Below are positions 5,564-12,197 of a stretch of 13,378 nt of DNA, one piece after another; the first letter of the stretch is position 1; every line of letters starts with the position of its first letter. The notes beneath the pieces were generated by a model. The model was given only the letters and a program-made list of their open reading frames with translations. It was not told where the DNA came from and made no database searches. This DNA is from an uncultured Flammeovirgaceae bacterium (GTDB lineage: Bacteria > Bacteroidota > Bacteroidia > Cytophagales > Cyclobacteriaceae). The DNA is taken from contig CAMLLI010000021.1 in assembly GCA_946480685.1 (NCBI GenBank), forward strand, positions 1 through 13,378. The letters are read 5' to 3'. Both the position numbers and the translations under genes were made by a program.

Positions 5564-5977
5564 TTATAAATTATTCTTCTTATTGTTTTTCTTTTTGGAT
5601 TCGTAGTCGTCTAAATAGTTGATGAATCCTTTTATGTTTTTTGATGCGGTGATTAGTTTGTTGTGCAGACGTTCGTAGTCATCTTGCGGTACTATGCCGG
5701 CTTCTTTCAGTACGAACAGATTGCTTCGTAGTTCTCCGGCTGATCCTTTTGCATATCCTAAAAAGCGCATAAATACATTGTTATTATTATACTCAAAGCC
5801 TTCTGCTATATTATTGGATACTGATATAGCAGCCCTTCGAAGTTGATCTTTAGAGGAGAAATCCTTTTCCAATTTTCCTCTTGACGATATACTATATATA
5901 TCCACCCCTATAGAAACCGCTTCCTTCCAAATCTCCAAATCCGCAAACCGTTCAATCCTCGCCATAACTTTTTTCAT
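5564..5977 (-). CDS. Four-helix-bundle protein of the S23 / 23S rRNA intervening-sequence (IVP) family
   Basis: This 137-aa protein has the family pattern FADLEIWKEA at residues 11-20, KDQLRRAAISVSNNIAEGF at 43-61, and FMRFLGYAKGSAGELRSNL at 69-87. The C-terminal tail is rich in K and N. Members of this family are encoded inside 23S rRNA intervening sequences. They are also distant relatives of Avd, the accessory protein of diversity-generating retroelements. The biochemical role of free-standing members is not established; basic residues and the Avd precedent suggest nucleic-acid binding. No reverse transcriptase or variable repeat is visible in the window. The ATG at 5977 is used; M5 (5965) is an equally good alternative because many relatives begin just before the F-x-D-L motif. 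The location inside the trp operon has no obvious metabolic logic. Confidence 0.9.
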   Translation of the reverse strand: MKKVMARIERFADLEIWKEAVSIGVDIYSISSRGKLEKDFSSKDQLRRAAISVSNNIAEGFEYNNNNVFMRFLGYAKGSAGELRSNLFVLKEAGIVPQDDYERLHNKLITASKNIKGFINYLDDYESKKKNNKKNNL

Positions 5978-6055: not shown

Positions 6056-7456
6056 CTATATCTTCTCAGCCATCAACACCGCCTTCCGAAGCGCAGTAAG
6101 TTTATTGTTCACCTCCTGCAATTCACTTTCGGCTTGTGATTTGGATACAACTCCGGCTCCGGCCTGGTATATCAGTTTATTTTCATGACTTAAGAATGTA
6201 CGGATCATGATGGCGTGATTGAACGATCCGTCAAAACCTATAAATCCTATTGCTCCCCCGTAAAATGTTCTGTTTGTGTTTTCGTATTTATTGATAAGCG
6301 TCATGGCCATGTGTTTAGGCGCACCGGATAGTGTACCAGCCGGAAATGTGTCGGCAGCCATTCCGATAATGGATGAGTCGCTTGCCAGTGTCCCGGTAAC
6401 TTTGGACACTAAATGTATAACGTGCGAGTAGTATTGAATTTCCTTGAACACTTCAACATGTACACTCGAAGCATTTCGGCTCATATCGTTACGGGCTAAA
6501 TCTACCAGCATTACGTGCTCCGCATTTTCTTTTTCATCAGCAGCAAGTCGTTCGGCAATCGCTGCATCTTCCTGGTCGTTGCCCGATCTGCGAAATGTTC
6601 CGGCTATAGGGTATATATGTGCCTTGCCGCCCTTTACCTGCAACTGTGCTTCCGGTGATGAACCGATCAGCTTAAAATTACCATAGTCAAAATAAAACAG
6701 GTAAGGTGATGGATTGATGGAACGCAACGCGCGGTATACATTAAACTCATCTCCTTTAAAGCCACATTGAAATCTCCTGGAAAGTACGATCTGAAAAACA
6801 TCACCGCGGTAACAATGCTCTTTGCCTTTTTCAATCACTTTGAGAAACTCTTCATCGGTGAAGTTAGATTCCTCACCATTCACCAACGAAAACTTATAGG
6901 TAGAGAAGCGATTGCTGAATATGATCGGCTCAATTCTGTCGAGTGAGCTTGGTGTAACGGACTGATGTGAATGTTCGAATAAACTCAGTTCGTTGGAGAA
7001 ATGATCTACGACAATTACATACCGGTATAGTTTGTAGATCGCATCGGGTATCATCTTTTTCTTCTGATCGATCGTTACGGTTTCAAAAAACCGAACGGCA
7101 TCGTACGATAAATATCCGAAGAGTCCGCAGTTAGGATACTTGGAACCAACCTGCTGCTGAACATCAAATTTATTTCTGAAATCTTCGAGCAGTGAAGTAA
7201 CGTGTCCTACACCTGAAATTTTTATCTGCTCCGCTTTACCATCCGGATATTGAATGGAAGCTTCATTGTCTACCACCTCGAACGATGCAATAGGGTCGCA
7301 GCATATAAAGGACAAACTGTTTTCATGACCATGATAATCGGAGCTTTCCAGGAGAATGCTTCCTGCAAACACATCGCGCAGTTTCAGATATATATTAACA
7401 GGGGTGAGTGTATCTGCCAGAAGTTTCTTGGTGTAGGTTGTTAATGCATACTTCAT
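6056..7456 (-). CDS. trpE: Anthranilate synthase component I
   Basis: This 466-aa subunit converts chorismate and ammonia (from TrpG) to anthranilate. The N-terminal LLES motif at residues 35-38 is the tryptophan feedback site, so the enzyme is probably inhibited by the end product. Catalytic-domain motifs are all present: PIAGTFRR (283-290), LVDLARND (317-324), FPAGTLSGAPK (371-381), YGGAIGF (399-405) and QAGAGVV (431-437) followed by an E-x-E-x-x-E-x-x-N-K end. The ATG at 7456 gives a normal N-terminus; it is preceded by an A-rich stretch rather than a clear Shine-Dalgarno sequence. It is the first enzyme gene after the attenuator. Confidence 0.97.
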   Translation of the reverse strand: MKYALTTYTKKLLADTLTPVNIYLKLRDVFAGSILLESSDYHGHENSLSFICCDPIASFEVVDNEASIQYPDGKAEQIKISGVGHVTSLLEDFRNKFDVQQQVGSKYPNCGLFGYLSYDAVRFFETVTIDQKKKMIPDAIYKLYRYVIVVDHFSNELSLFEHSHQSVTPSSLDRIEPIIFSNRFSTYKFSLVNGEESNFTDEEFLKVIEKGKEHCYRGDVFQIVLSRRFQCGFKGDEFNVYRALRSINPSPYLFYFDYGNFKLIGSSPEAQLQVKGGKAHIYPIAGTFRRSGNDQEDAAIAERLAADEKENAEHVMLVDLARNDMSRNASSVHVEVFKEIQYYSHVIHLVSKVTGTLASDSSIIGMAADTFPAGTLSGAPKHMAMTLINKYENTNRTFYGGAIGFIGFDGSFNHAIMIRTFLSHENKLIYQAGAGVVSKSQAESELQEVNNKLTALRKAVLMAEKI

Positions 7457-7515: not shown

Positions 7516-7551
7516 AAAAAAAGAAGGCCTGCTGGTGAACAGCAGGCCTTC
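7516..7551 (-). terminator. Intrinsic terminator of the trp attenuator
   Basis: On the minus strand a 12-bp perfect GC-rich stem (GAAGGCCUGCUG with CAGCAGGCCUUC) closes a 5-nt loop and is followed at once by seven U. This is a textbook factor-independent terminator. It lies between the leader peptide and trpE, where it would stop transcription before the structural genes. The left stem and loop overlap the antiterminator partner (7535-7543), so the two folds exclude each other. It may also be the normal 3' end of the upstream ribosomal protein transcript. Confidence 0.93.
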
Positions 7552-7605
7552 GGCATTATCGCGTTAACATAAAAAGGCTGTTCACATATCGTGTTTCGAT
7601 ATATG
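7535..7605 (-). promoter_or_regulatory. trp attenuator: pause hairpin and antiterminator
   Basis: Two competing folds are visible in the leader RNA. The pause hairpin pairs CAUAUAUCG (7605-7597), directly after the three Trp codons, with CGAUAUGUG (7591-7583); there is one U-G wobble and the loop is AAACA. The antiterminator pairs GUGAACAGC (7585-7577) with GCUGUUCAC (7543-7535), nine perfect pairs. The second sequence is part of the terminator stem and loop. A ribosome stalled on the Trp codons would cover the 5' pause arm, free the 7591-7577 strand and favour the antiterminator. A ribosome reaching the UGA at 7584-7582 would cover that strand and let the terminator form. Confidence 0.88.
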
Positions 7606-7638
7606 CCACCACCAAGCTATGTTATTGAATTGTATCAT
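7582..7638 (-). CDS. trpL: trp operon leader peptide
   Basis: This 18-codon frame encodes MIQFNNIAWWWHISKHDM and ends in UGA. Three consecutive UGG codons (7614-7606) in an 18-residue peptide, placed ahead of competing RNA hairpins and a terminator, make it a ribosome-stalling sensor of charged tRNA-Trp. The peptide itself is expected to have no function. The AUG lies 6 nt after the stop codon of the upstream ribosomal protein gene. It has no strong Shine-Dalgarno sequence (the spacer is GAAAAC), so translation may be partly coupled to that gene. The stop codon lies inside the antiterminator arm, which is the expected geometry for release of attenuation. Confidence 0.88.
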   Translation of the reverse strand: MIQFNNIAWWWHISKHDM

Positions 7639-7644
7639 GTTTTC

Positions 7645-7824
7645 TTATTCTGCTTTCTTTTTAGCAGGTGTTCTTTTTTTAGCAGGAGTTGCAGCAGCAT
7701 CGGCTGTTCCTTTTTTAGAAGTTGCTCTCTTCAGACGAGCTTTGATAGCATTTTTACTTCTTGTAACACCGTAAGAGCCTTTCGTGCGCTTACCTTTTTT
7801 GGATTTTTTATCTCCTCTTCCCAT
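7645..7824 (-). CDS. thx: 30S ribosomal protein THX (bTHX)
   Basis: This 59-aa, strongly basic protein starts MGRGDKKSKKGKRTKGSYG, which matches the bTHX/S31e family of small 30S proteins (M-G-x-G-D-x-K-[ST]-x-x-G-K...GSYG). These bind the head of the small subunit. The C-terminal half is a lysine/alanine-rich tail with two copies of a TPAKK motif (residues 45-49 and 51-55), similar to unstructured nucleic-acid-binding tails. The stop codon is 6 nt before the trp leader AUG. No TTTG, the core of the Bacteroidota -7 box, occurs on the coding strand of this gene. That leaves no obvious internal promoter for trp and suggests read-through from here. Confidence 0.88.
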   Translation of the reverse strand: MGRGDKKSKKGKRTKGSYGVTRSKNAIKARLKRATSKKGTADAAATPAKKRTPAKKKAE

Positions 7825-7967
7825 GAATTTAGTTAAAATTGATGCGGCAATAATAGTAAAGTCTTGATTGATTACAAATACCAGACAAAAAAATTACAAT
7901 TATTCCAACACCATTGTCAGTCTAACAATGAGACAAGGAAACTCCGGCAAATCCCAGTTCAGGATGA
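7825..7967 (-). promoter_or_regulatory. Probable promoter region for thx and the trp leader
   Basis: This 143-nt AT-rich gap lies between the small gene ending at 7968 and thx. It contains imperfect matches to the Bacteroidota promoter pattern (TTG, then about 19-20 nt, then TAnnTTTG). One is a minus-strand GGTATTTG near 7883-7876 with several upstream TTG triplets; none is convincing. A 6-bp inverted repeat CATTGT/ACAATG (7912-7917 and 7925-7930) lies upstream. It has no adjoining U-run, so it is not a clear terminator and could be an operator. The promoter role is inferred mainly from position. Confidence 0.35.
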
Positions 7968-8486: not shown

Positions 8487-11400
8487 TCAGAACAGGAAAC
8501 CGAGTCGGATGTAAAACATGTTGCCGTCTTTACTGTGTGCCAGTTCGGCTGCGAGCACGGTTAAATTAAATGGTGTAACCCATATTCCTCCACCGTATCC
8601 CTTATGCCATACGCTGGATGTACCATCGGCTGTGCTGGGATCTTTACCGGTGGCATCTTTATACCATACGCGCCCGACATCAAAGAAACCATTTATACCT
8701 ACGGATGCCGGGAATATATAGGAGCGGAAGCTGGCAATCTTCAGGCGCACTTCATTGTTGCTATAGAAATCGCGATCGCCGTAGAAACGTGTTTTACGGA
8801 AACCGCGAAGTTCGGTTTTACCATCGAGTATCTGCGCCTGGTATATTTCATATTTACCTGTGTTGATACCACCACCGGCACGAAGCGCAAAGGTTACGCG
8901 GGCCGGAAGTCTGAACGACTGGTAGAACGCAACGGATGCGTTATGCGCAGTGAAGTCATGTGCACGAGACTCCAGACCTTTATATACCGTTGAGGATTGA
9001 TTTAACACCACACCACGTGTTGTCAGTATCCGGCTGTCGCGCTTATCGATGAGAAACTCGGTGCGAAGTCCCGCAAAGGTTTTGGACACTTCGAACAAAG
9101 GTTCATCCAGGGTAGCGGCATACTCCGCGATATAGCGTGGTGATTTGGTTGGTCGTTCAATCTCCACGCGCTGGTATACCGGACCGATTTTAAAAAGTCC
9201 TGCGCTACCAAACGGACGCGTCAGCATGGCTCGCAGATCTATTTGTTGCAAGCGAATACGATAGTAGTCAATTGAAGTCCTGAGCTGATCTTCGTATTGG
9301 GGTTCATCGTCAAGCTCATCATTATATACTGTCTCATTACCCCAGCCGAAGAAGTTGTTTACGAAGTTGGGAGCTTTCACATCGAAGTCAAGTGCTATAC
9401 CCCACTTGCCGAATACCTGCGAGAAGCGGCCATCGTATTTAAAATTATAGGAGCTGGTGAGCGGAGCATAGCTGAACAAAAACAAGTGCTGTGTCTTAAA
9501 CGGAAATTTACGGAAGCCATGCTTGGTATACAGAAAACCTCCGCCTATAAATATACCATCGTCATAGTTAAAGGTTCCGTAAACAAGCGGTGCCAGTACA
9601 GGGTACCGATATGCCCTGCGATCGTACAGGTTTACATCCGGATCATCGGTGGTCTTATCAGCCAGGTGTCGCTTGCTGTTGATGGCTATACCAGCAGGTA
9701 CATCGTATATCTTATACGGCTGTCTCCAACCTTTTACAGAGGCATTGTTTCGTACCGAATCGCCACCATCACCACCGATCACCCGCACCATTATTTTTCC
9801 TTTACCTTCTCCGGTAAAATTAAATATATCATCTCCGCCAAAACCATATAGTCTTACTTCGTCCGTTTCGCTGGCCAGGAATTTACGCTCATATAGTTTT
9901 GAAGTGTGTTCTCCGGACTTGCTGATCTTATATATACTTACCGTGGCATCGCCATTCGGCTCTTGCTGTATATCAAAATACTCACGCTTGTCAGAACCGG
10001 TTACGTCAACTTCACGCGCCAGGAATTTATAGTGCTCCTGTGCATACTCCGGCAAACGGTCTCTTCGTGATTTCAGTTTACGCGCAATCTCTTCACCGTG
10101 CAGTTTATATATTTCAGCAGGCAATCGTTTTACGGCAGCGTCAATTGTCTCATCGGTCAGTGATTGTTGCACGCTCTTCGCCTGCTCCTGCCATTGTGCT
10201 GCCGATGGTTGATTCAGAAAACTTCTGTCGAAGTAACGTGCGTTGAACATGAACCCGGGCGTCCATCGTACTTCTTCATTAAAGCCTTCAAACTTTGGCA
10301 GCGCCCACTTCCGGCTCCATACTTTGGCAAGTATACCATCGCTCACAAACAGCGCCTGATCGCGATCGCGTGGTATAGGACGATAGTATTCTGTTTTCTT
10401 TTCTTTGAAAGAGGCCCAGCGCCACTGATCATCATGACGATCCCAGTCGCCTATAACAATATCAAAAACACGCGAGCGCAGCACGAACTCCTGGTCAACA
10501 TAATTATCATTGTCTTCCATGAGTTTCTCCAGTACTTTATCAGTGCTGATAACTTTTTTGGAATTTCCGAAGTACGGTTTATCACTCGCATCTCCCGCAG
10601 GACGTTCTTCGAACAACATCAACGTGTTGGCAAATTCTTTCCGGTATACTCCGAAGCGCGGATCATCCGGGATATATACTACCTGCGGGTTGGTATGATA
10701 TATACCGGCCGCTTCTGCTAGGGGTGTTACTGTCAGTGCTCCGTACGGATGTGCAGCTGAGATCTGGTCTTGCACAAGGTCTGCAGCAAAAGTTTTCTGC
10801 AACATTTCAGGCACAGCTTTCTCCGGGAATTTCTCGATGGAACGTAAGGTATACTCCTGTCCTAAAGAATCCGCGAGGCGCAGCGACAGCGTCTGCATGC
10901 CTCCTCCCTTTTGCAATATCTTTAACCCGCCGGCTACACCACCGATGTTGAATACAGGAACATCGATATCCTGCTTCCACTCATCGCGGTAATTTTTGCC
11001 GAGTATCGTTTTATGAAATTTACCGGCAGTATAACGATCGCTGGCATGTACACGAACTGTTTTTGAAAAATCAGGCAACGCCTGCTCACCTTGTGCTTCC
11101 GGATTTACCTCCGCTTTTACCTGTACGGTATATACAGGCTGTTCTTTACCGATCTCGAAGTAGTCAATGGAAGAAGCGCCTCCGTTTGAAACGTTGATCT
11201 TTACAAAGCCCATGGCGGCCGAGGCAAAACGGGCGTATCCTTTCCTCTTTACAAAAGTATATTTAGAGGCCGATCCACTGGTAACATAATGTACACTGTC
11301 TTTCCAGGCATATTGCAGCGCATGCTCATGACCATTGACATATATAGTATTCGGATATTTCTTCAGCAGCTGCGACATCACCTGGATATAGCGTTTGTAT

Positions 11401-12197
11401 ACCGGGTGCGGAGTGTCCTGTATATCGCCTATGAATTTTCGGTACAATGGGTATATCGAGCCGATACCCGGCATCGGTATATATAGGTCGTGATTGAGGT
11501 CTAATAGCGGGAACAAGTGATCCTTCCAGGTAAATACACCTCCGTGTTCACCGTACGTGTAAAGTGGATGGTGAGCCGTCACAATAACGCGTTTACCTAT
11601 ATTCCGGTTGAAGATGTCTTCCAGTTGTATCACGGCATCCTCCGGACGCTTTACCTCACAGGGACTGTCGTCACCTTCGGGTTTATCCCACGGGTGCAGA
11701 AACCATTGAGAGTCTATAATTACCAGCACAGCATCTTTACTCAGCGGCACCTCTACCGGGCCGGGACAACCTCCTTCGGGTTGAAAGTGTATATGTTCAT
11801 TGTGAAGCGAATCAACCCACGCTTCCTGGTGGGCAATCTGTTGCCAGCCGTCCGAATGTCCTTTTTTCCAGTCGTGGTTTCCGGGTATAAAGTATACATC
11901 CGTGTTAAATCCCTGGAGCAGGTTGAGTTGAGCTTTCAGGATCGCTTCTGCCTCCTGGCGGCCGCGTTCATCGGGTGCCGGAAGTCCCTTGGGGTAAATA
12001 TTGTCTCCCAGAAAAATTACCACCGAAGGTATAGCAGGATCGTACTTCTTTTGTAATAATTCACGCAGGCCGTTCGTTGGTAAGGTTGGTTCTCCTGCAT
12101 CACCAATCATATAGAGGTTAAAGCTCTGTTGCTGAGGATAGAGCGGAGAGCTGATGAGAAGGAACAATAGAAAATTAGCGAGTCGAAGTCTAATCAT
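8487..12197 (-). CDS. Outer-membrane metallophosphoesterase with kinase-like middle region and Omp85-type beta-barrel
   Basis: This 1236-aa protein starts with a signal peptide (residues 1 to about 22). Residues 25-345 are a calcineurin-like phosphoesterase of the ACP5/purple acid phosphatase type. Its motifs are GDAGE (32-36), GDN (64-66), GNHDW (106-110), AHHPLY (208-213) and NGHEHALQ (288-295), so metal binding looks intact. The middle part (about 500-730) contains FDIVIGDWDRHDDQW (578-592) and PRDRDQALF (609-617). These recall the catalytic-loop and metal motifs of HipA/FAM20-like kinases. Residues 785-815 are Gly/Asp-rich. The C-terminal part (about 865-1236) is an Omp85/BamA-type barrel: DKRDSRILTTRGVVL (1051-1065), ELRGF (1129-1133, loop-6 signature), FFDVGRVWY (1171-1179) and a terminal Phe. 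The phosphoesterase would face the periplasm or cell surface, anchored in the outer membrane. Substrate and kinase activity are unknown. It seems to be transcribed alone. Confidence 0.85.
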   Translation of the reverse strand: MIRLRLANFLLFLLISSPLYPQQQSFNLYMIGDAGEPTLPTNGLRELLQKKYDPAIPSVVIFLGDNIYPKGLPAPDERGRQEAEAILKAQLNLLQGFNTDVYFIPGNHDWKKGHSDGWQQIAHQEAWVDSLHNEHIHFQPEGGCPGPVEVPLSKDAVLVIIDSQWFLHPWDKPEGDDSPCEVKRPEDAVIQLEDIFNRNIGKRVIVTAHHPLYTYGEHGGVFTWKDHLFPLLDLNHDLYIPMPGIGSIYPLYRKFIGDIQDTPHPVYKRYIQVMSQLLKKYPNTIYVNGHEHALQYAWKDSVHYVTSGSASKYTFVKRKGYARFASAAMGFVKINVSNGGASSIDYFEIGKEQPVYTVQVKAEVNPEAQGEQALPDFSKTVRVHASDRYTAGKFHKTILGKNYRDEWKQDIDVPVFNIGGVAGGLKILQKGGGMQTLSLRLADSLGQEYTLRSIEKFPEKAVPEMLQKTFAADLVQDQISAAHPYGALTVTPLAEAAGIYHTNPQVVYIPDDPRFGVYRKEFANTLMLFEERPAGDASDKPYFGNSKKVISTDKVLEKLMEDNDNYVDQEFVLRSRVFDIVIGDWDRHDDQWRWASFKEKKTEYYRPIPRDRDQALFVSDGILAKVWSRKWALPKFEGFNEEVRWTPGFMFNARYFDRSFLNQPSAAQWQEQAKSVQQSLTDETIDAAVKRLPAEIYKLHGEEIARKLKSRRDRLPEYAQEHYKFLAREVDVTGSDKREYFDIQQEPNGDATVSIYKISKSGEHTSKLYERKFLASETDEVRLYGFGGDDIFNFTGEGKGKIMVRVIGGDGGDSVRNNASVKGWRQPYKIYDVPAGIAINSKRHLADKTTDDPDVNLYDRRAYRYPVLAPLVYGTFNYDDGIFIGGGFLYTKHGFRKFPFKTQHLFLFSYAPLTSSYNFKYDGRFSQVFGKWGIALDFDVKAPNFVNNFFGWGNETVYNDELDDEPQYEDQLRTSIDYYRIRLQQIDLRAMLTRPFGSAGLFKIGPVYQRVEIERPTKSPRYIAEYAATLDEPLFEVSKTFAGLRTEFLIDKRDSRILTTRGVVLNQSSTVYKGLESRAHDFTAHNASVAFYQSFRLPARVTFALRAGGGINTGKYEIYQAQILDGKTELRGFRKTRFYGDRDFYSNNEVRLKIASFRSYIFPASVGINGFFDVGRVWYKDATGKDPSTADGTSSVWHKGYGGGIWVTPFNLTVLAAELAHSKDGNMFYIRLGFLF

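What the first reader, a model, noticed from the sequence alone, without database searches (positions are those of the whole stretch)
7516..7638. Complete ribosome-mediated trp attenuator with a WWW leader peptide in a Bacteroidota-type operon
All parts are readable: an 18-codon leader with three tandem Trp codons, a 9-bp pause hairpin starting right after them, a perfect 9-bp antiterminator whose 5' arm contains the leader stop codon, and a 12-bp terminator with seven U. The geometry matches the enterobacterial trpL model closely, yet the sequences look unrelated. Such attenuators are best described in Proteobacteria. I cannot check how widely this form is already catalogued in Bacteroidota.
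Basis: partly seen in the sequence, partly recalled or inferred. Interest (0 to 1): 0.8.

Follow-up and report, generated by a model that had tools for sequence, protein, structure and literature searches.

The report
Tryptophan attenuator behind ribosomal-protein gene
A short RNA switch that senses tryptophan lies in front of this bacterium's tryptophan genes; the switch is of a known kind, but here it seems to work as the conditional end of a ribosomal-protein gene's message, an arrangement shared by a group of relatives.

Summary
Homologous leaders support trp attenuation. A Trp-run mini-ORF plus terminator precedes trpE in 66 of 80 related loci; none occurs elsewhere in those loci. Hairpin 1:2 covaries on three of five measures. 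Among 24 close units the antiterminator arms GTGAACAGC and GCTGTTCAC occur together in 11, and neither occurs in 13. The kind is known: Rfam RF01692 'Bacteroid-trp'; the window scores 29.4 bits, below its cut-off of 49.

The less expected part lies just outside the finding. The leader ATG sits 6 nt behind a gene for ribosomal protein bTHX. In 24 such close-set units a Bacteroidota-type promoter-like site precedes bTHX in 22, and none was found between bTHX ATG and leader. The attenuator therefore probably decides whether transcripts started at bTHX stop or run on into trp: a new variant of a known kind, without RNA data.

The parts
7848..7878 (-). Bacteroidota-type promoter-like site: TTTG (7878-7875), 19-nt spacer, TATTATTG (7855-7848), one mismatch to TAnnTTTG
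   Evidence: a site with at most one mismatch 24-32 nt before the bTHX ATG in 22 of 24 coupled units; 26 of 4800 mononucleotide shuffles. The consensus is recalled, not from a call.
7645..7824 (-). gene for 30S ribosomal protein bTHX, 59 aa
   Evidence: NCBIfam TIGR04560 39.1 bits, cut-off 26; below the cut-off of Pfam Thx (14.3 vs 29.7); one copy in each of 10 linked genomes.
7582..7638 (-). trp leader ORF MIQFNNIAWWWHISKHDM-stop
   Evidence: 6 nt after the bTHX stop; AWWWH core kept in the 16 leaders with GCT/GCA and CAT/CAC changes (these 16 were chosen by eye for that core)
7606..7614 (-). three tandem Trp codons
7583..7605 (-). hairpin 1:2 (pause / protector), 9 bp
   Evidence: covariation
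7577..7585 (-). antiterminator 5' arm (segment 2), holds the leader stop UGA
7535..7543 (-). antiterminator 3' arm (segment 3)
7523..7551 (-). terminator hairpin 3:4, 12 bp
7516..7522 (-). seven-T run of the terminator
6056..7456 (-). trpE, anthranilate synthase component I
   Evidence: PF00425, PF04715
4938..5504 (-). trpG
   Evidence: PF00117
3891..4877 (-). trpD
   Evidence: PF00591, PF02885
3042..3854 (-). trpC
   Evidence: PF00218
2396..3022 (-). trpF
   Evidence: PF00697
1141..2322 (-). trpB (by place in the operon and PALP family)
   Evidence: PF00291
312..1088 (-). trpA
   Evidence: PF00290

Best explanation
It is a ribosome-mediated transcription attenuator of the trp operon, placed as the conditional terminator of a bTHX transcript. 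RNA polymerase starts upstream of bTHX, copies bTHX and then the leader ORF. With enough Trp-tRNA the ribosome runs to the leader stop and covers segment 2, so terminator 3:4 forms and the RNA ends near 7516 as a bTHX-leader message. With too little Trp-tRNA the ribosome stalls on the WWW codons and covers segment 1; segment 2 pairs with segment 3 before segment 4 is made, and the polymerase reads into trpE-G-D-C-F-B-A. The leader is probably translated by ribosomes coming off bTHX (stop to ATG 6 nt). Shown by sequence and comparison: the parts, the competing stems, covariation, Trp codons, gene order, promoter-like site. Inferred: termination, its control by Trp, the start of transcription, translational coupling. 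The confidence below is for trp attenuation at this place; the first rival disputes only the promoter.
For: Anatomy. Trp-run leader plus terminator upstream of trpE: 66 of 80 relatives with strict rules, none elsewhere; 77 of 80 with looser rules. Hairpin 1:2 in 23 units: 87.9% of cells paired (shuffles 77.2), 22 cells changed on both sides (shuffles 7.0), covariation score 0.359 (0.184), each 0 of 500 shuffles. Antiterminator arms: GCTGTTCAC present in 11 of 11 units with GTGAACAGC and in 0 of 13 without; well-supported branches of a TrpE tree force at least 2 changes. bTHX directly upstream: 24 coupled units, gap -1 to 15 nt; promoter-like site before bTHX in 22 of 24, between bTHX ATG and leader in 0 of 24. 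TrpE-like gene downstream of bTHX in 35 of the 86 bTHX genes of a family-level sample.
Against: No RNA data. At equilibrium the terminator (-22.5) is stronger than the antiterminator (-14.2), and folds with segment 1 masked still show the terminator, so the switch must be kinetic, as is accepted for E. coli trp (recalled). Two covariation measures did not exceed shuffles: pairs changed on both sides 4 (225 of 500 shuffles, 143 of 500) and further pair types (387 and 75 of 500); the shuffles do not allow for kinship. Over 106 units the own antiterminator pairing beat the mean of other leaders in only 78, and 66 were in the best 5 of 100 shuffles. In 7 of 13 second-class units the script's best match was another pairing than the one I propose. 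All 22 promoter-like sites before bTHX have one mismatch in the -7 box; a promoter of other sequence inside bTHX is not excluded.
Confidence: 0.85

Rival explanations
1. Attenuation as described, but trp has its own promoter inside the bTHX gene, and the close spacing is only compaction. (Not exclusive with the attenuation part of the best explanation.)
For: In linked units with wider gaps (30 nt or more) a promoter-like site lies between bTHX and the leader in 6 of 16, so a separate trp promoter is the arrangement in some relatives.
Against: No such site from the bTHX ATG to the leader ATG in 24 of 24 coupled units, against 22 of 24 before bTHX. The scan sees one promoter type only.
Confidence: 0.25
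2. The terminator is just the constitutive end of bTHX, and the WWW peptide and antiterminator are chance.
For: Terminators after genes are ordinary; the terminator is the most stable element.
Against: In the 80 loci Trp-run mini-ORFs with terminators were found before trpE only; both stems covary.
Confidence: 0.03
3. A protein or tRNA (TRAP-like or T-box-like) rather than a ribosome reads the leader.
For: None found.
Against: No Rfam family (T-box is one of them, recalled) reaches its gathering score in the window; Trp codons lie in frame in short ORFs in most relatives. TRAP sites were not searched for.
Confidence: 0.02

Closest known systems
Rfam RF01692 Bacteroid-trp (Bacteroidete tryptophan peptide leader RNA; listed in Table 1 of Weinberg et al. 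2010, PMC2864571)
   Same: Upstream of trpE in Bacteroidota, same leader layout with UGG run; the window aligns over the whole model, 1-131; 6 of 20 relatives scanned pass the cut-off upstream of trpE, all six flavobacteria by title.
   Different: Window 29.4 bits against a cut-off of 49; none of the 6 bTHX-linked loci scanned (L001-L005, L007) passes, nor does one flavobacterium, L006. In many flavobacterial leaders the antiterminator reads GUCGUGA:UCACGAC (loop and 3' arm of the terminator); in the window it uses the 5' arm and loop (by reading, not a formal test).
Enterobacterial trp leader (trpL attenuator; recalled)
   Same: Trp codons in a short leader, 1:2, 2:3 and 3:4 stems, U run, leader stop near segment 2.
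   Different: Three Trp codons in a row; bTHX gene directly upstream with no promoter-like site between; Rfam's enterobacterial trp leader family is not among the 10 weak matches.
Leader-peptide attenuation upstream of amino-acid operons in Flavobacterium psychrophilum (PMC9723704, passages read)
   Same: Same phylum; clues for leader-peptide attenuation reported for amino-acid biosynthesis operons.
   Different: The main text has no word beginning with trp, and the passages seen name no upstream ribosomal-protein gene; supplements were not seen.

Membership tests
Rfam RF01692 Bacteroid-trp | score at or above the gathering threshold (49 bits) | tested here: not met
   29.4 bits, E 0.22 in a 401-base search; no match at gathering
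Rfam RF01692 Bacteroid-trp | lies upstream of trp genes in Bacteroidota with in-frame UGG run | tested here: met
   nearest relative L001 is a Flammeovirgaceae MAG, TrpE 97% identical
Rfam RF01692 Bacteroid-trp | fits the consensus fold over the full model | tested here: inconclusive
   aligned to positions 1-131, with several non-standard pairs marked
ribosome-mediated amino-acid attenuators (trp type) | short ORF with regulatory Trp codons upstream of trp genes | tested here: met
   (translation itself not shown)
ribosome-mediated amino-acid attenuators (trp type) | mutually exclusive antiterminator and intrinsic terminator, conserved by covariation | tested here: met
   with the weak points told in the Against line
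ribosome-mediated amino-acid attenuators (trp type) | termination relieved by tryptophan starvation | not testable with these tools
   needs RNA 3'-end mapping or a reporter
ribosomal protein bTHX | score over the curated NCBIfam cut-off | tested here: met
   39.1 vs 26 bits; Pfam Thx below cut-off (14.3 vs 29.7)

The most novel reading that the evidence does not exclude
In a group of Cytophagales-like Bacteroidota the trp operon has given up its own promoter: the only bTHX gene and trp form one transcription unit, the attenuator is the conditional terminator of a ribosomal-protein message, and the sensing ribosome is handed over from bTHX to the leader by termination-reinitiation, so that tryptophan sensing is tied to the rate of making ribosomes.
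Probability: 0.5. Interest if true: 0.6.

Novelty: new variant of a known kind. Interest (0 to 1): 0.42.

Why it matters
It extends a catalogued Bacteroidota trp leader to relatives that the Rfam model does not pick up at its cut-off (0 of 6 linked loci scanned). It also shows an arrangement in which a ribosomal-protein gene may supply both the promoter and the ribosomes for an amino-acid attenuator. That gives a testable case of how leader peptides are started in bacteria that mostly do without Shine-Dalgarno sites (recalled), and of antiterminators that change register while both arms stay matched.

Tried and rejected
Own-genome search: no genome is held for the window. Rfam at gathering score: nothing. 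The other nine weak Rfam matches (STnc370, ctRNA_pGA1, OrzO-P and others) are all below their cut-offs and were not followed. A first pattern search TGGTGGN{0,3}CAY was too loose to be useful; it served to get genome handles. Plasmid collection: no match. Considered and rejected: chance, plain bTHX terminator, T-box or TRAP control (see rivals).

Rows dropped and weak points of counts; 3 of 109 upstream stretches gave no unit (L009, L010, L065); 28 of the 109 had been chosen by their WWW motif, so only the 80 trpE loci test presence; for L023, L052 and L063 only the upstream of two leaders was scored; some of the 28 may come from the same species as some of the 80 (only L082, L098, L136 and L159 were left out as doubles). 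One search is strict and misses units seen by eye (such as L017, L031, L049). L200 was left out of 24 because its hairpin is 3 nt shorter; the second class was set by the loose motifs (A/T)TCGGTG and CCG(A/G); 10 of 11 first-class units also hold a match to that loose segment 3 motif, so only the first-class arms tell the classes apart. 'coupled' was set as a gap under 30 nt from the last ATG before the Trp run, so a short gap is partly by definition; the bTHX reading frame was capped at 120 aa, which gave wrong gaps for L236, L244 and L250; with the true stops their gaps are about 43, 41 and 50 nt, so the groups do not change. One search found no terminator in L245; a GC-rich hairpin with a broken T run is there; 31 of 78 pattern places of the order sample were upstream of trpE; the other 47 had no trpE match in the flank fetched, and the reversed control pattern also matched in some genomes, so many are chance; two of the 81 bTHX loci were cut short by contig ends (L241, L247), and loci L204-L254 hold only about 1000 nt downstream.

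Papers: PMC2864571 passages (Table 1 lists Bacteroid-trp, Bacteroidetes, RNA 'y', cis-reg 'y', switch 'n'; the words tryptophan and leader peptide do not occur in the main text); PMC9723704 passages; other papers only as search listings. Searches for bTHX with Bacteroid, ribosomal protein THX with trpE, and bTHX with operon gave 0, 0 and 2 papers (the 2 look unrelated from their listing). The library lacks most subscription journals.

Full report
What is there. On the minus strand, reading towards trpE, the window has: a TTTG-N19-TATTATTG promoter-like site (7878-7848), a 59-aa gene of ribosomal protein bTHX (7824-7645; NCBIfam TIGR04560, 39.1 bits against a cut-off of 26), six bases, then the leader ORF MIQFNNIAWWWHISKHDM (7638-7582), and trpE at 7456.

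More than chance. Relatives of TrpE were collected from genome contigs; 80 loci were kept of more. A mini-ORF with at least two TGG in a row followed by a terminator was found within 520 nt upstream of trpE in 66 of 80 loci, and nowhere else on either strand of the same loci (0 in 1,116,446 bases). With looser rules 77 of 80 loci and the window have a unit (misses L009, L010, L065). L010 shows a leader-like ORF with a single Trp codon by eye. The window's segment 2 and 3 pairing was reached by 0 of 100 shuffles; over 106 units, 66 were in the best 5 of 100, and own pairing beat the mean cross pairing in 78 of 106. Folding energies: 1:2 -8.2, 2:3 -14.2, 3:4 -22.5 kcal/mol. With segment 1 masked the free-energy minimum is still the terminator, so antitermination must win by being made first.

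Covariation. In 11 close units hairpin 1:2 pairs in 89.9% of cells, with 14 cells changed on both sides against 5.3 in shuffles. In 23 units it pairs in 87.9% (shuffles 77.2), 22 cells against 7.0, score 0.359 against 0.184, each 0 of 500 shuffles, and slid versions pair in at most 41.1%. Two measures do not exceed shuffles: the number of pairs changed on both sides (4; 225 and 143 of 500) and further pair types (387 and 75 of 500). The fourth pair is broken in 10 of 23, the fifth in 5. The shuffles do not allow for kinship. The antiterminator arms fall into two classes in 24 units: GTGAACAGC with GCTGTTCAC (11 units, the window among them; 9-11 bp, the script's best match in all 11) and units with neither (13), where (A/T)TCGGTG faces CCG(A/G).... 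For 6 of these 13 the script's best match is that pairing (6-10 bp); for the other 7 it is another one, and the proposed pairing is shorter, by eye. The first-class arms go together in 24 of 24. On a TrpE tree the well-supported branches force at least two changes of class; L254 (second class) groups with the window, L001 and L252 (first class) at 96/90. Many branches of that tree are weak, and L004 and L005 are long. In many flavobacteria a further register, GUCGUGA:UCACGAC, uses the loop and 3' arm of the terminator.

The bTHX link. In the window and L001-L005, L007 the leader starts right behind bTHX. A motif search in 291 genomes of the order matched in 67, at 78 places, 31 of them upstream of trpE and 5 of these behind bTHX. 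A bTHX search in 148 genomes of the family-level group found the gene in 86; a TrpE-like gene lies downstream in 30 of 81 newly fetched loci and in 5 already known, 35 of 86. All 10 linked genomes tested have one bTHX gene. Of 41 linked units (these 35 and six more, the window among them), 24 are coupled (gap under 30 nt), 16 have wider gaps and one (L196) shows no Trp-run leader. In the 24 coupled units the gap from bTHX stop to the first leader ATG is -1 to 15 nt; 22 of 24 have a promoter-like site before bTHX (26 of 4800 shuffles), each with one mismatch in the -7 box, and 0 of 24 have one between bTHX ATG and leader ATG. In the 16 units with wider gaps, 6 have a site between bTHX and leader and 1 before bTHX (gaps of L236, L244 and L250 corrected to about 43, 41 and 50 nt). 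The simplest reading is that the coupled form lost the trp promoter and took over that of bTHX. The promoter consensus is recalled, and an unlike promoter inside bTHX is possible.

How it most likely works. As in the classical trp attenuator: a ribosome at the WWW codons frees segment 2 for 2:3 and readthrough; a ribosome at the stop covers segment 2 and lets 3:4 end the RNA near 7516. In the coupled form the RNA that ends there is the bTHX message, so bTHX would be transcribed at either tryptophan level and trp only when tryptophan is short. Translation of the leader by ribosomes leaving bTHX is an inference from the spacing.

What is known. Rfam has a Bacteroidete tryptophan peptide leader, RF01692, listed in Table 1 of Weinberg et al. 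2010 (PMC2864571; passages read). The window aligns over its full length at 29.4 bits, below the cut-off of 49; the 6 bTHX-linked loci scanned do not pass either, while 6 of the 20 loci scanned, all flavobacteria, do. So it works like that family and is probably kin, but fails its formal test. A F. psychrophilum transcriptome paper reports clues for leader-peptide attenuation before amino-acid operons (PMC9723704, passages). No paper linking bTHX to trp was found in three searches of a library that is not complete.

Verdict. The attenuator is real as far as sequence can show and of a known kind; its place as conditional terminator of a ribosomal-protein transcript is the part worth following.

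Noticed in passing
L175, L189, L214, L216, L250 (between bTHX and trpE); L023, L052, L063; possibly L060: Two Trp-rich leader ORFs in tandem, each followed by its own terminator, before one trpE: double trp attenuators.
   Followed up: partly
window 5564-5977 (-): A four-helix-bundle gene (TIGR02436 / PF05635, 23S rRNA IVP-like) lies inside the operon between trpE and trpG. Of 80 loci only two matched it: L002 after trpE (66% over 73 aa, at the end of the contig) and L001 weakly (51% over 51 aa), although L001 is otherwise 82-88% identical DNA.
   Followed up: partly
window 7500-7474 (-): A second hairpin CGATCGG...CCGATCG lies between the terminator and trpE; L001 keeps the stem with another loop.
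   Followed up: partly
window 8487-12197 (-): A 1236-aa protein joins a calcineurin-like phosphoesterase region to an Omp85-type barrel (PF00149, PF01103).
   Followed up: no
L010, upstream of trpE: A leader-like ORF with one Trp codon before a GCTTGCTGTTCGCAGTAAGC terminator: perhaps a decayed or different leader.
   Followed up: no
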